From Epilithonimonas lactis (GTDB lineage: Bacteria; Bacteroidota; Bacteroidia; Flavobacteriales; Weeksellaceae): a DNA stretch of 64,000 nt. Each line of letters starts with the position of its first letter. Positions within the stretch are counted from its first letter, which is position 1. Below are positions 49,893-54,029 of this stretch, piece after piece. The notes under the pieces were generated by a model. That model had not been told where the DNA came from. It ran no database searches and was given only the letters and a program-made list of their open reading frames with translations. Location of the stretch: positions 124,001 to 188,000 of the forward strand of contig NZ_FOFI01000003.1 in NCBI RefSeq assembly GCF_900110605.1, given 5' to 3'. A program made the translations under genes and the position numbers.

Positions 49893-50414
49893 TCTTTTTG
49901 GATATTACCAAATTTAATGAAAAAAGAAAGAAAAATGATTTTAAATTACCAATTCAACAATTATATAAAACATAATTAGAATTAAAATCAACAAAATAAT
50001 ATAAATTTTATCGATAATTTACATTTAATTAATATTAGATGGTTATTTGTTAAAATTAAATTAATATTGAAAATATTTAAATGACTGAAAATGAATACAT
50101 TATTCAAAAAGCATTCATTTTAATTAGAATATCTTCTAGAGAAACTCTTTAAAATGACAATAATTTTTGAGAATGAAATTAATTAAAACATACCCTTTAA
50201 AAATATGAGGTACAAATTTTAAAATTCAGTTTATCATAAAATTCCTATAACTTTTATGTGGTAGAAATTAAAAAAACTAAAAATTAAAACAGAAAACAAA
50301 AACGGTGTAGAAATTAACAAAATGCTAATTCAACATACATATCATCAAATTGATATTAAATCAATAAAAAACCCCACTTTTACAAGCAGGGTCATTAATA
50401 TTATAAAGAAATCA
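49893..50414. other. AT-rich gap between gltB and the lysS-end remnant
   Basis: These 522 bases are extremely AT-rich and hold no supported gene or RNA. Only the gltB -7 box near 49909 and a terminator hairpin at 50366-50392 were recognised. The run lies between the lysS-end remnant and gltB, so it may contain the old boundary of the inserted cassette, but no inverted ends or transposase traces are seen. Confidence 0.5.
50366..50392 (-). terminator. Terminator beyond the lysS-end remnant (probable original lysS terminator)
   Basis: On the minus strand GACCCTGC and GTGGGG can pair, followed by TTTTTTATTG. The stem is imperfect. It lies about 20 bases after the TAA of the duplicated lysS end, the distance expected if this was the native terminator of lysS before insertion. 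Confidence 0.55.
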
Positions 50415-50495
50415 TTAAATTAATTTCATCCACAAAGCCTCATCAATCTTATCAACTTTTACCAAATTATTTTTAGTTAAAGTTTTTGAAGCCTT
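50415..50495 (-). pseudogene. Remnant of the lysS 3' end (duplicated target)
   Basis: These 81 bases align without gaps to the last 81 bases of lysS (52329-52409, offset 1914) with about seven mismatches. In frame they still read KASKTLTKNNLVKVDKIDEALWMKLI and TAA, against the live end ...KVDEVLWMKLV and TAG. The differences at protein level are conservative (V to I, V to A, V to I), so this was once a translated lysS end. The match stops within five bases of the small gene's stop codon. It is best explained as the original lysS end displaced by insertion of the cassette. Confidence 0.8.
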
Positions 50496-50499
50496 TAAT

Positions 50500-51018
50500 T
50501 TAATCAAACAAAATATAATTACCTTCAAAAAGATCAATATTATATTTTAATTTGAACAATACTTTTTTTTCGGACGTACTAGACTGCGGAACTTTTCTTT
50601 TGGTATAACCTCTTGGATTTACACTTTCAAAAACTGCTAAAGCTTCTTTACGTTCAAAATTCTCTAAAAATTCTTTGTAATATTTAAAAGTATTTTCAAG
50701 CTGTTTATATATTTTCTTTCTATGGTTTGCTTTATTTTCTTTAGTAGCTTTTATTTCTACAAAATGAATTTTATTAGAATTGAAAACAACAAAGTCACAT
50801 TGTCCATTTTTCTCACTTAACATTACACAATTATCATTTTGGACAAAATGATAACTTTCATTGATAGTATTTTCTATGTGAATGTGATAAATTTCATTAG
50901 CGCTTACAAAAACACCTTTCTTTGAAACCTCATCATCGTAAGCAAATTTATGTCTATCAGATATTTCTATAGAACATAACTCTTTCAAGGGAAATATATC
51001 ATTAAACTCAGCTATCAT
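50500..51018 (-). CDS. PD-(D/E)xK-like nuclease candidate, partner of the AAA ATPase
   Basis: The 172-residue protein has a likely restriction-endonuclease-like core: D75 in QCDFVVF, then E88-I-K90 in HFVEIKATK, an order of strand, hairpin and ExK found in PD-(D/E)xK nucleases. A downstream helix has Q106 (KQLENTFKYY), comparable with the QxxxY helix of RecB-type nucleases. The N- and C-terminal parts are not recognised. Its ATG overlaps the stop of the ATPase gene by four bases (ATGA), so the two are translationally coupled. The gene is AT-rich. The likely job is cutting nucleic acid when released or activated by the ATPase, but no activity can be shown from sequence. Confidence 0.7.
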   Translation of the reverse strand: MIAEFNDIFPLKELCSIEISDRHKFAYDDEVSKKGVFVSANEIYHIHIENTINESYHFVQNDNCVMLSEKNGQCDFVVFNSNKIHFVEIKATKENKANHRKKIYKQLENTFKYYKEFLENFERKEALAVFESVNPRGYTKRKVPQSSTSEKKVLFKLKYNIDLFEGNYILFD

Positions 51019-52307
51019 AAAGCTAATAGTCTATCAAATTCATTTGAAAATTTGTCAGTCACATTATCTATAATATTGGATTTTATCTGCCCCAGACTAT
51101 CATTCATAATTTTATAAGATTTTCCATTTCTCAACTCATACACATTAAAAAACTCGGGATTAATCCAAGATTCTCTTTTTATAATTTTATGAACTTCATT
51201 TGGTTTTTCTTTTCCTTTTTCGAAAGCTAGCAATAAATTATTAATTGATGCTAAGATATATGGACTATGAGTGGTCATAACCATTTTTTTTCTTTGATAA
51301 TTCTTGACTTTAAAATCAAAAATATTTTTGACTAAATATTTAATTAGTTCATACTGTGTTTCCGGATAAATATTTAGCTCTGGCTCTTCCACAACATAAT
51401 TGAAGTAATAATTTTCTTTTAAAGTATTTGCATACTCTATCAGCAAAATAATAGGTATAATACTCTGAAGCCCCGAAGCGGACTGAAGTAAGTCTGTTTT
51501 TTCTTCTTTATTATGATATATATAAGAGGTTTTACCTTCTCTTTTATAACTATATTTTTTATCTATTAAATTTAAAGGAATTTCCTTTACAACGTTTAGT
51601 GCTTTTTCATACTCTTGTCCAATTTCTAAAAGATGTTTTGGTATTTTAACATCATTATTAATTAAACCCAAGGTGTTTTCAGCTATGATATGTAGAAAAT
51701 TTCTTTCTGATGGAATATATTGAGAATCATAATACTTATAAACTCCTTTATCCTCAAAGCTTTCTTCAATAATTTTAAATACATCTTCTATGTCACTTTC
51801 CGTGATCGGTGCACTTAAGCTCGTATCAATAGCTTCATAAAAAGCATCTAAATCAGGATGAGTTAATCCAGTAGCCAAGAGATCCATCATAATCAAACCT
51901 TTTACATAATCTTTAATCTTCTCCTTATCAACTTTTCCAGTTTTAGTATATTCTTTGACTATATTTTTTTTATATAAATTTCTGAAATTTATTTTATAAT
52001 AACTTTTACTTTCATATTCAAAATGAAAATTATATCCAATATTTTTGTTTTGTTTTACAATTCCTTTGTAAAAACAGATAACAGTTTTTTCATTCAAAAA
52101 CTTGTTCATTCCATATTTTGCCAACTCTTTTTCAAACAAGACATCTTCATTCTCTCTAAAATTTTCATCCTCAAAAATTGCAATTAATTTAGCAATAGTA
52201 CTTTTACCAGTAGCTTGCTTGCCAATAAGACATAGGAAATCCCTGACCTCGATATCAACATCTTTCAGAGGTCCAAAATTTTTAACAATAAGTCTTGCTG
52301 ATTGCAT
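51015..52307 (-). CDS. SMC-like AAA15/AAA21-type ATPase of a two-gene cassette
   Basis: The 430-residue protein has an ABC/SMC-type ATPase split by a long middle region. Walker A is GKQATGKST (29-37), the ABC-type signature is SASGLQSI (276-283), Walker B is YVVEEPELN (304-312), and the H-loop is TTHSPY (345-350). The insert (about 55-260) is helical and charged. This layout is that of AAA15/AAA21 ATPases found in OLD, Septu, PARIS and RloA-type defence systems; no DUF4435 or HNH partner is present. It begins 21 bases after the lysS stop with no promoter between, so it is probably read from the lysS promoter. Codon use and GC are below those of lysS. Confidence 0.85.
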   Translation of the reverse strand: MQSARLIVKNFGPLKDVDIEVRDFLCLIGKQATGKSTIAKLIAIFEDENFRENEDVLFEKELAKYGMNKFLNEKTVICFYKGIVKQNKNIGYNFHFEYESKSYYKINFRNLYKKNIVKEYTKTGKVDKEKIKDYVKGLIMMDLLATGLTHPDLDAFYEAIDTSLSAPITESDIEDVFKIIEESFEDKGVYKYYDSQYIPSERNFLHIIAENTLGLINNDVKIPKHLLEIGQEYEKALNVVKEIPLNLIDKKYSYKREGKTSYIYHNKEEKTDLLQSASGLQSIIPIILLIEYANTLKENYYFNYVVEEPELNIYPETQYELIKYLVKNIFDFKVKNYQRKKMVMTTHSPYILASINNLLLAFEKGKEKPNEVHKIIKRESWINPEFFNVYELRNGKSYKIMNDSLGQIKSNIIDNVTDKFSNEFDRLLAL

Positions 52308-52328
52308 CTTGATTTTTTTACTAAATTA

Positions 52329-54029
52329 CTAAACTAATTTCATCCACAAAACCTCATCAACTTTGTCAACTTTTACCAAATTATTCTTAGTTAAAGTTTT
52401 TGAAGCCTTGTCCCATTTCTTTCCGGACAATTGAGAACGGTTTTTAACTTCATTAAGCTCTAAAGGCTCTTCCTGAGAATTAAGAATCTCGAGAATCACT
52501 TTTTCGTCTTCTCCCAACTCCACTTTTGGAACCACTTTCTCTGGTCTCATTTGGGGGAAGAAAAGAACTTCCTGGATCGATGGATTATTGGTCAGGAACA
52601 TGATCAATCTGTCCATTCCAATTCCCATACCAGATGTTGGCGGCATTCCGTATTCCAAAGCTCTCAAGAAATCTTCATCAATAAATTGCCCGGCTTCATC
52701 ATCTCCTTTTTCAGCTAGTTTCAATTGGTCTTCAAAACGTTCTCTTTGGTCAATTGGGTCATTAAGCTCAGAATAAGCATTCGCAATCTCTTTACCGCAA
52801 ACCATTAATTCGAAACGCTCGGTCAAACCTTCCTGCGTTCTGTGTTTTTTGGTCAAAGGCGACATTTCCACAGGATAATCAGTAATGAATGTTGGCTGGA
52901 TGAAGTTTCCTTCACATTTCTCTCCGAAAATTTCGTCGATTAATTTTCCTTTACCCATTGTTTCATCAACATCAATTCCGATAGATTTGGCAAAATCGAA
53001 CAATTCCTGCTCTGACTTTCCAGTGATATCAAAACCTGTATATTTTTGAATTGCTTCTGTCATAGAAACTCTTGCATAAGGCGCTTTGAAATCAATCTCC
53101 TGGTCACCAAATTTGGCTTTCGTAGTTCCGTTTACAGCAATTGCGCAATGTTCTATCATTTTTTCAGTGAAATCCATCATCCAGTAATAATCTTTGTAAG
53201 CAACATAGATTTCCATTACTGTAAATTCCGGATTGTGCGTTCTGTCCATCCCTTCATTCCTGAAGTTTTTTGAGAATTCATAAACACCGTCAAATCCTCC
53301 AACAATCAGTCTTTTCAGATATAATTCATTAGCAATTCTTAGATATAAAGGAATATCCAAAGCATTGTGATGCGTAATGAAAGGTCTTGCCGCAGCTCCA
53401 CCTGGAATAGCCTGCAAAACAGGAGTTTCAACTTCAATATAACCAGCATCATTGAAAAACTGACGCATTGCGGTGTACATTTTTGTTCTCTTCACGAAAG
53501 TTTCTTTAACGTTTGGATTCACAATTAAATCTACGTAACGCTGTCTGTAACGTAATTCTGCATCGTTGAAAGCATCGTGCACGACTCCATTTTCATCAGT
53601 TCTTGGCTGAGGAAGCGGACGAAGTGTTTTGGTCAAGATTTGAAAATTGGTCACCTTCACGGTCATCTCGCCAACTTGTGTGTTGAACAATTCACCTTCC
53701 ACGCCGATGATATCGCCGATGTCAAGAAGATGCTTGTAAACCTCGTTATACAAAGTTTTGTCTTCACCAGTGCAGATCTCGTCTCGGTTAAAATAAACCT
53801 GGATCTTGCCTTCGGAATCCTGCAATTCTGCAAAACTCGCCTTTCCCTGAATTCTTCTGGACATCAACCTTCCAGCAATCACCACCTTTTTTCCTTCTTG
53901 GAAATCCTGTTTTATAGACTTCGTGGAATCGGTGATTTTGTATTCAGCGGCCGGGAACGCATCGATTCCCAGGTCGGTCAGTTTTTGCAATTTTTCGCGA
54001 CGGATAATTTCCTGTTCTGATAATGACAT
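52329..54029 (-). CDS. lysS: Lysyl-tRNA synthetase, class II, with C-terminal extension
   Basis: The 566-residue enzyme charges tRNA-Lys. The OB anticodon domain fills residues 55-150. The class II catalytic domain shows motif 1 near PVLQAIPGGAAARPF, motif 2 FRNEGMDRTHNPEFT, and motif 3 GMGIGMDRLIMFLTN. After the usual end an extension of about 65 residues (from EDEKVILEILNS to WMKLV), with a winged-helix look, follows, as in Flavobacteriia. Its last 27 codons are those repeated at 50415-50495, so the present 3' end may have come with the inserted cassette. A TATTTTTG box (54053-54060, minus) lies 23 bases upstream. Confidence 0.96.
   Translation of the reverse strand: MSLSEQEIIRREKLQKLTDLGIDAFPAAEYKITDSTKSIKQDFQEGKKVVIAGRLMSRRIQGKASFAELQDSEGKIQVYFNRDEICTGEDKTLYNEVYKHLLDIGDIIGVEGELFNTQVGEMTVKVTNFQILTKTLRPLPQPRTDENGVVHDAFNDAELRYRQRYVDLIVNPNVKETFVKRTKMYTAMRQFFNDAGYIEVETPVLQAIPGGAAARPFITHHNALDIPLYLRIANELYLKRLIVGGFDGVYEFSKNFRNEGMDRTHNPEFTVMEIYVAYKDYYWMMDFTEKMIEHCAIAVNGTTKAKFGDQEIDFKAPYARVSMTEAIQKYTGFDITGKSEQELFDFAKSIGIDVDETMGKGKLIDEIFGEKCEGNFIQPTFITDYPVEMSPLTKKHRTQEGLTERFELMVCGKEIANAYSELNDPIDQRERFEDQLKLAEKGDDEAGQFIDEDFLRALEYGMPPTSGMGIGMDRLIMFLTNNPSIQEVLFFPQMRPEKVVPKVELGEDEKVILEILNSQEEPLELNEVKNRSQLSGKKWDKASKTLTKNNLVKVDKVDEVLWMKLV

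What the first reader, a model, noticed from the sequence alone, without database searches (positions are those of the whole stretch)
50415..52409. Two-gene cassette inserted into the 3' end of lysS with an 81-base direct repeat
The last 81 bases of lysS (52329-52409) recur at 50415-50495 with no gaps and about seven mismatches. Between the two copies lie only an SMC-like ATPase gene and a nuclease-like gene. The remnant still reads as lysS protein with conservative changes and is followed by a terminator at the expected place. This implies the cassette arrived with its own, slightly diverged lysS end and displaced the original one, a strategy better known for islands at tRNA genes. No integrase is present, so homologous exchange of the lysS end is a possible mechanism.
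Basis: partly seen in the sequence, partly recalled or inferred. Interest (0 to 1): 0.8.

Follow-up and report, generated by a model that had tools for sequence, protein, structure and literature searches.

The report
Phage-defence genes docked behind lysS
A two-gene cassette that looks like a phage-defence system has inserted between the end of an essential gene (lysS) and its stop signal, leaving a second copy of the gene's end, and close relatives of this cassette in other bacteria sit at the same spot although they seem to move between species without carrying an integration enzyme.

Summary
The repeat is real: 74 of 81 bases, no gaps, copy A 50415-50495, copy B 52329-52409; the best match elsewhere in the region is 39 and in 100 shuffles 46. 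Between them lie an AAA_15 ATPase and a PD-(D/E)XK-like nuclease, both matching PADLOC candidate defence system PDC-M29. None of 22 same-genus relatives has a close homologue, and copy A plus terminator is colinear with the lysS end of the nearest ones. The larger result: close homologues with readable context lie directly behind lysS in 16 of 16 loci (this genome, a Chryseobacterium MAG, 14 Flavobacterium), while nine distant ATPase-nuclease pairs do not. The lysS-linked ATPases form one clade. Within Flavobacterium, ATPase similarity does not follow lysS similarity (rho -0.01), so the cassette seems to move horizontally yet stay at lysS. A second lysS end was found here and in the Chryseobacterium MAG only; Flavobacterium cassettes follow the lysS stop codon. 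The ATPase has a hypervariable middle, and nucleases come in several types. Best reading: a defence cassette spread by recombination anchored at lysS. That it carried its own lysS end is possible, not shown.

The parts
52329..54029 (-). lysS, lysyl-tRNA synthetase, 566 aa, intact; its last 81 bases are copy B
   Evidence: NCBIfam lysS_bact 614 bits over a cut-off of 427.6; ORF
52329..52409 (-). copy B: functional 3' end of lysS (26 codons plus stop)
   Evidence: 74/81 identical to copy A
52308..52328 (-). 21-base spacer, lysS stop to ATPase start; no terminator-like site, so probably co-transcribed with lysS (inference)
51015..52307 (-). AAA_15/OLD-like ATPase, 430 aa, with Walker A GKQATGKST (motif recalled); presumed sensor/ATPase subunit of a PDC-M29-type system
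   Evidence: Pfam AAA_15 1.1e-24; PADLOC PDC-M29A 2.1e-33, AriA 4.1e-25; 15 of 15 aligned homologues match PDC-M29A
51738..52166 (-). ATPase codons 48-190: hypervariable block between conserved ends, presumed recognition domain
   Evidence: 13 Flavobacterium homologues: 33% mean identity here against 94% (1-47) and 87% (191-430); DNA 49% for codons 76-190 against 90% (1-47) and 83% (211-430)
50500..51018 (-). PD-(D/E)XK-like nuclease, 172 aa; presumed effector subunit
   Evidence: PADLOC PDC-M29B 1.2e-11, 9 of 9 aligned homologues; invariant D75, E88, K90, Q106; weak Foldseek hits, many to PD-(D/E)XK nucleases (fold class recalled)
50749..50796 (-). nuclease codons 75-90, D-x12-E-x-K candidate active site
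   Evidence: D75, E88, K90 invariant in 9 of 9; motif meaning recalled
50415..50495 (-). copy A: displaced second 3' end of lysS, reading frame kept
50370..50393 (-). terminator-like stem, colinear with the lysS terminator of the nearest relatives, now ends the cassette
   Evidence: relatives

Best explanation
The cassette is a two-gene anti-phage system of the PADLOC candidate type PDC-M29: an AAA_15/OLD-like ATPase that probably senses infection through a hypervariable middle domain, and a PD-(D/E)XK-like nuclease that it probably releases or activates. It belongs to a subfamily that lives behind lysS. It moves between Flavobacteriales without an integrase in the cassette: incoming DNA is anchored by homology in lysS (or in a resident cassette) and the far end is joined by a non-homologous event, or a circle with a lysS end inserts by one crossover. 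lysS stays intact and the cassette enters between the lysS coding end and the lysS terminator. When the far junction falls inside the resident lysS end, a duplicate end remains, as here (81 bases) and in a Chryseobacterium MAG (about 50 bases). When it falls after the stop codon, only the terminator is displaced, as in Flavobacterium. Shown: the repeat, the empty sites, the lysS linkage, the lack of correlation with lysS inside Flavobacterium, the mosaic ATPase. Inferred: defence function, recombination route, sensor role.
For: No close homologue in 22 of 22 same-genus genomes (20 of them at least 90% complete), one lysS end each, terminator after copy A colinear with the nearest ones. A second lysS end after the nuclease in the Chryseobacterium MAG: protein score 66, against at most 38 in 20 other family lysS regions; window copy 124. 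Close homologues lie behind lysS in 16 of 16 readable loci; nine distant pairs have no lysS in the 9-16 kb read. lysS-linked ATPases are one clade, support 100/98. Patchy: 12 of 259 Flavobacterium genomes with a nuclease hit, 11 of them lysS-linked. Flavobacterium-only correlation of ATPase and lysS identity -0.01 (78 pairs), e.g. lysS 92% with ATPase 63%, lysS 87% with ATPase 91%. In 26 Flavobacterium lysS loci without the cassette a terminator-like stem follows lysS within about 100 bases (by eye); in 6 of 13 carriers the commonest such stem (CCCGACA type) follows the nuclease within 130 bases instead (by eye). PDC-M29A/B profiles match all members tested. Precedent in E. coli: incoming DNA with a gene end gave duplications of that end (14 sequenced, 109-950 bp), explained by single crossing-over (PMC3240628, passages).
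Against: No donor DNA identified, so the crossover is not seen. Carriers' lysS tails in Flavobacterium show no excess likeness over the body on average (392 to 553 of 1000 label shuffles reach the observed value); only the nearest-tail count leans that way (8 against 5 of 13; 6 for the last 81 bases). None of 13 Flavobacterium carriers tested has a lysS remnant in 1.2 kb, nor the 14th, G1159 (L059), so the duplication is the exception. In 7 of 13 carriers the stem after the nuclease is not of the commonest empty-site type, or lies farther off. No phage or growth assay. No homologue on plasmids or viral contigs at the sensitivity used; two unannotated phage records hold distant ATPases. The pairs behind the correlation are not independent.
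Confidence: 0.6

Rival explanations
1. Insertion with long target duplication, as proposed for restriction-modification genes: the cassette inserted at lysS and duplicated 81 bases of the target; both copies were identical at first and diverged since.
For: Both copies look native; differences fall on both sides, 5 rarer states in B and 2 in A (read by eye on six relatives). Flank upstream of B and downstream of A is host-like. The concept is cited for RM systems in PMC3031569 (passages and reference list).
Against: Does not by itself explain why lysS is always the target, nor the Flavobacterium cases without a lysS repeat. 9% divergence implies an old event, yet no genus relative has the cassette.
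Confidence: 0.2
2. Vertical inheritance: the lysS cassette is ancient in Flavobacteriales and most lineages lost it; the repeat is an old scar.
For: Across the two families ATPase and lysS identities correlate (rho 0.56, 105 pairs). G1091 has a carrier-like terminator but no cassette behind lysS.
Against: Within Flavobacterium the correlation vanishes. No close homologue in 22 of 22 genus relatives; 4 of 320 family genomes, this one included, have even a nuclease-level hit.
Confidence: 0.1
3. A site-specific recombinase acting in trans recognises the lysS 3' end as an attachment site, as integrases do at tRNA genes.
For: Strict site fidelity over genera and a duplicated gene end like attL/attR.
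Against: No recombinase between the repeats. The right-hand boundary differs: 81 bases inside lysS here, about 50 in the Chryseobacterium MAG, after the stop codon in Flavobacterium, unlike a fixed core site. Host recombinases were not surveyed.
Confidence: 0.05
4. The linkage is kept by selection on function (not exclusive of the others): the effector acts on tRNA-Lys or the system needs lysS expression, so only copies beside lysS survive.
For: The ATPase is AriA-like (4.1e-25), and the PARIS effector AriB cleaves tRNA-Lys(UUU) among others (PMC12409363, passages). Linkage holds although spacer, terminator and nuclease type differ.
Against: The nuclease is PD-(D/E)XK-like rather than Toprim, a superfamily best known for DNA cleavage (recalled). 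Recombination anchored in lysS explains the linkage without function.
Confidence: 0.12

Closest known systems
PADLOC candidate system PDC-M29 (M29A ATPase, M29B nuclease)
   Same: Both genes match; 15 of 15 ATPases and 9 of 9 nucleases
   Different: lysS linkage and hypervariable middle are not part of the profile; in the held library, searched only for the name, 0 papers hold it
PARIS (AriA/AriB)
   Same: AAA_15-type ATPase next to a small nuclease; ATPase aligns with AriA over residues 5-352
   Different: Effector is PD-(D/E)XK-like, not Toprim
Septu (PtuA/PtuB), Gabija GajA and OLD-family systems
   Same: Related ATPases match at lower scores; the one PDB sequence hit at E up to 1e-5 is an OLD-family nuclease, 8e-6
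   Different: No HNH (PtuB, recalled) or Toprim domain found in the two proteins
Insertion with long target duplication of restriction-modification genes (Nobusato et al. 2000, seen only as a reference)
   Same: Defence-type cassette flanked by a direct repeat of target sequence
   Different: Here one gene is used again and again, and most carriers lack the repeat
Minimal mobile elements of Neisseria (recalled)
   Same: Cassettes exchanged at one locus through flanking conserved genes
   Different: Only one flank, lysS, is constant among the loci read
tRNA-gene genomic islands (recalled)
   Same: Gene 3' end restored by the insert, old end displaced
   Different: Protein gene, no integrase in the cassette, variable right boundary

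Membership tests
PADLOC PDC-M29 candidate defence system | adjacent genes matching PDC-M29A and PDC-M29B | tested here: met
   for the window; 15 of 15 and 9 of 9 homologues
PADLOC PDC-M29 candidate defence system | anti-phage activity | not testable with these tools
   no assay; the system is listed in the library as a candidate
PARIS | AriA-type AAA_15 ATPase | tested here: met
   AriA 4.1e-25, 87 bits, but PDC-M29A scores higher (114 bits)
PARIS | AriB Toprim nuclease | tested here: not met
   no Toprim or AriB hit for the 172-aa protein; D-E-K motif instead
Septu | PtuB HNH nuclease beside PtuA | tested here: not met
   no HNH or PtuB hit for the nuclease or its 8 aligned relatives
PD-(D/E)XK nuclease superfamily | conserved D, E-x-K active site on the fold | tested here: inconclusive
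   D75, E88, K90 invariant in 9 of 9; model pLDDT 79; Foldseek top hits largely PD-(D/E)XK but 0 of 426 with E up to 0.001; VRR_NUC hit in 2 of 9
Integrase-driven genomic island | integrase gene within the element and fixed att core | tested here: not met
   no integrase between the repeats; right boundary varies
Insertion with long target duplication | empty site in relatives plus direct repeat of target sequence | tested here: met
Insertion with long target duplication | repeat copies identical at insertion | not testable with these tools
   copies now differ at 7 of 81; no close strain carrying the cassette was found

The most novel reading that the evidence does not exclude
lysS is not just a docking site but part of the system: a horizontally moving, sensor-variable ATPase-nuclease system tied to lysyl-tRNA synthetase because its effector attacks tRNA-Lys (or because it watches lysS expression), so that an essential aminoacyl-tRNA synthetase acts as address, promoter and antidote of a mobile defence cassette.
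Probability: 0.12. Interest if true: 0.85.

Novelty: new variant of a known kind. Interest (0 to 1): 0.6.

Why it matters
It gives a clean natural case of a defence cassette with strict address fidelity but no integrase in it, apparently moving between species with the end of an essential gene as its anchor. That makes a long-standing question testable: how small integrase-less defence cassettes travel. Carriers, empty sites and junctions are listed, and the hypervariable ATPase middle and differing nucleases point to an immune locus that diversifies by recombination at one place. The lysS tie also offers a concrete guess for the effector target.

Tried and rejected
Chance repeat: rejected. 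Foreign lysS end: looked for by identity along lysS and flanks; neither copy is foreign-looking. Carriers' lysS tails in Flavobacterium are not enriched for likeness on average, with a lean in the nearest-tail count (8 against 5 of 13); the 26 comparison genomes were the nearest to G499, so they are a poor yardstick for the remoter carriers. Recombination inside lysS within 52951-53550 exists but is separated from the cassette by host-like sequence, so it was not taken as its left border. Hotspot with varied cargo: 20 further family lysS regions, taken from the top of the list (19) plus the second lysS contig of G172, show diverse downstream genes but no second lysS end; no other cargo seen before the terminator in 26 cassette-free Flavobacterium loci (by eye). 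Phage or plasmid vehicle: no homologue in plasmids or viral contigs, two distant phage records. ATPase structure: model poor (pLDDT 53), not searched. The search of 320 family genomes for a doubled lysS end did not answer the question, because its match list was cut off. One genome-contig scan with the single nuclease found nothing; the alignment found five. A PDB sequence search with the nuclease profile gave one irrelevant hit at E 0.55. Rows dropped: G1159 left out (broken reading frames, lysS cut by the contig); G919 left out of the tree (ATPase frame broken); G172 not counted in the 16 because its contig begins inside the ATPase. Papers: 0 hold the name PDC-M29; 0 hold three of the four terms lysS, defense system, insertion hotspot, Flavobacterium; the listings showed nothing on point, one passage was read (PMC10865869).
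Full report
Observation. The 81-base repeat stands at the stated coordinates with 74 identical positions and no gap. The next best match to the lysS end in the same region is 39 of 81, and 100 shuffles reach at most 46. Copy B (52329-52409) is the real lysS end; copy A (50415-50495) keeps the reading frame and stop. The repeat breaks off sharply at its inner edge; past the stop codon only weak likeness remains. A terminator-like stem follows copy A. The stretch between the copies is 26% G+C against 40% in lysS.

The two genes. The first product matches AAA_15 (88 bits) and PADLOC PDC-M29A (114 bits), then AriA (87 bits); the second matches PDC-M29B (43 bits) and, below threshold, NERD and HSDR_N_2. 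All 15 aligned ATPases and all 9 aligned nucleases match PDC-M29 A and B. The nucleases share an invariant D75, E88, K90 and Q106. A model of pLDDT 79 finds only weak Foldseek matches, none with E up to 0.001, the top ones largely PD-(D/E)XK nucleases (fold class recalled). The ATPase model was too poor to use. Defence function is therefore an inference from families.

Empty sites. The genus sample holds 22 relatives, 20 of them at least 90% complete. None has a close homologue of the ATPase; G007 has a 37% one about 524 kb from its lysS. Each relative shows one lysS end only in the stretch read. In 16 of 22 the gltB-like gene of the window follows within the 1.5 kb read; of the other six, five lead to gyrB and one ends at a contig edge (gene names gltB, gyrB, cydB are by recall). 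Copy A and the terminator after it match the empty sites of the nearest relatives; the 522 bases beyond copy A are 93-95% identical to G010, 83-88% to G015 and G013, while remoter relatives have other sequence there. So copy A is the displaced resident end. Copy B and the lysS stretch before it also resemble the nearest relatives (93-94% for 52410-52569; 90% for B and 94% for A against G010 and G015). Of the seven differences, by eye on the six nearest relatives, A holds the commoner state at five (at two of these the relatives vary) and B at two. Neither copy looks foreign.

lysS linkage. A search of 320 family genomes with the nuclease gave, beside this genome, two close hits, G194 and G172, and a weak one, G035. 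G194 (a Chryseobacterium MAG by the matching record) has the cassette 13 bases behind lysS and, after the nuclease, a second lysS end of about 50 bases followed by a terminator-like stem. That second end scores 66 as protein; the window's copy 124; 20 other family lysS regions reach at most 38. Further searches (order, 395 genomes; class, 395; Flavobacterium, 259; genome contigs; samples overlap, so the counts should not be added) gave more homologues. Those with ATPase identity of about 49% or more and readable context all lie directly behind lysS on the same strand: 16 of 16 (window, G194, G321, G425, G499, G614, the JQJY01 record, G1186, G1149, G1062, G1100, G1192, G1238, G1131, G1070, G1159). 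G172 is not counted, as its contig starts inside the ATPase. Nine more distant pairs (G007, G035, G639, G671, G821, G873, G919, G967, G1119) have no lysS in the 9-16 kb read. A tree of 15 lysS-linked and 8 other ATPases puts the lysS-linked ones in one clade, support 100/98; long outgroup branches make the deeper order unsure.

Movement. In 13 Flavobacterium carriers (G1159 left out) ATPase identity does not follow lysS identity: Spearman -0.01 over 78 pairs; with the two other genomes 0.56 over 105 pairs. The pairs are not independent. Examples: G499 and G1100 share 92% of lysS but 63% of the ATPase; G614 and G1238 share 87% of lysS and 91% of the ATPase. The cassette is rare: 12 of 259 Flavobacterium genomes have a nuclease hit, 11 of them lysS-linked. 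This fits transfer with address fidelity better than descent with loss.

Junctions in Flavobacterium. In 26 lysS loci without the cassette a terminator-like stem follows within about 100 bases (by eye). In 12 of 13 carriers a leader of about 82-88 bases stands between the lysS stop and the ATPase start, with its own terminator-like stem; leaders of the commonest type are 92% alike and 49-56% like 23 of the 26 empty sites, 60-73% like the other three. After the nuclease, 6 of 13 carriers show the commonest empty-site stem within 130 bases; the rest have another stem or a small reading frame first. The thirteenth, G425, has a longer spacer with a tRNA-end-like stretch that ARAGORN does not call. 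None of 13 carriers, and none of the 26 empty loci, has a second lysS end. The lysS tail does not visibly travel with the cassette: carrier pairs show no excess (392 to 553 of 1000 label shuffles reach the observed value), though the nearest tail belongs to a carrier in 8 of 13 (last 150 or 240 bases; 6 for the last 81) against 5 of 13 for the body. So one rule fits the cases, entry between the lysS coding end and its terminator, while the lysS repeat marks only events whose far junction fell inside lysS.

Mosaic cassette. Among the 13 Flavobacterium ATPases, residues 1-47 are 94% identical on average, 48-190 33%, 191-430 87%; at DNA level 90% for codons 1-47, 49% for 76-190, 83% for 211-430. 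The nucleases fall into types of about 27-57% mutual identity that do not follow the ATPase (rho 0.06 over 105 pairs). I read the middle block as the part that recognises a trigger, and the locus as one that exchanges parts by recombination; both are inferences.

Mechanism. I favour lysS-anchored recombination. In E. coli, incoming DNA sharing one gene end with the chromosome gave, in 56 of 60 clones, a PCR product diagnostic of a duplicated end; 14 were sequenced, with duplications of 109 to 950 bp, explained by single crossing-over of a circle; one-sided homology with an illegitimate far junction is the related route (PMC3240628, passages). Either would leave what is seen here. Insertion with long target duplication, cited for restriction-modification genes (PMC3031569, passages), is the main rival. 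A functional tie to tRNA-Lys is the boldest reading: the AriA-like ATPase recalls PARIS, whose effector cuts tRNA-Lys(UUU) and others (PMC12409363, passages), but the nuclease here seems to be of another fold, and nothing was tested.

Verdict. The finding is a new variant of a known kind: a PDC-M29-type defence cassette with lysS as a fixed address and no integrase in it.

Noticed in passing
window 52951-53550: In three of four 150-base steps this part of lysS is 92-95% like G004/G012 but only 73-81% like the nearest relatives G010, G013, G015, G020: recombination inside lysS, apart from the cassette.
   Followed up: partly
L094 600-1900 and L056 1-900 (G172): One MAG holds two versions of the interval before cydB: lysS, stem, 246-aa gene, terminator; and ATPase, nuclease, terminator of the same kind. 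Probably two strains with different content at one locus.
   Followed up: partly
L021 (G019) and L024 (G018), lysS 3' part: The LysS C-terminal extension ahead of SGKKWDKASK is strongly diverged (both) and longer (G019), while the last codons are ordinary.
   Followed up: no
L063 6301-6625 (G425): The spacer between lysS and the cassette holds a stretch like the 3' end of a tRNA; ARAGORN finds no tRNA gene.
   Followed up: partly
L164 (G1091), behind lysS: No cassette, but a terminator region 73% like the carriers' leader: perhaps a scar of loss or a source type.
   Followed up: no
L144 (G1159): Cassette behind lysS with broken reading frames: decay or sequencing errors in a MAG.
   Followed up: no
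L136 after 8402 (G1186) and L139 after 8327 (G1100): A short reading frame of similar sequence follows the nuclease; a similar one follows the lysS terminator in G1071, which lacks the cassette. Possibly a small partner gene.
   Followed up: no
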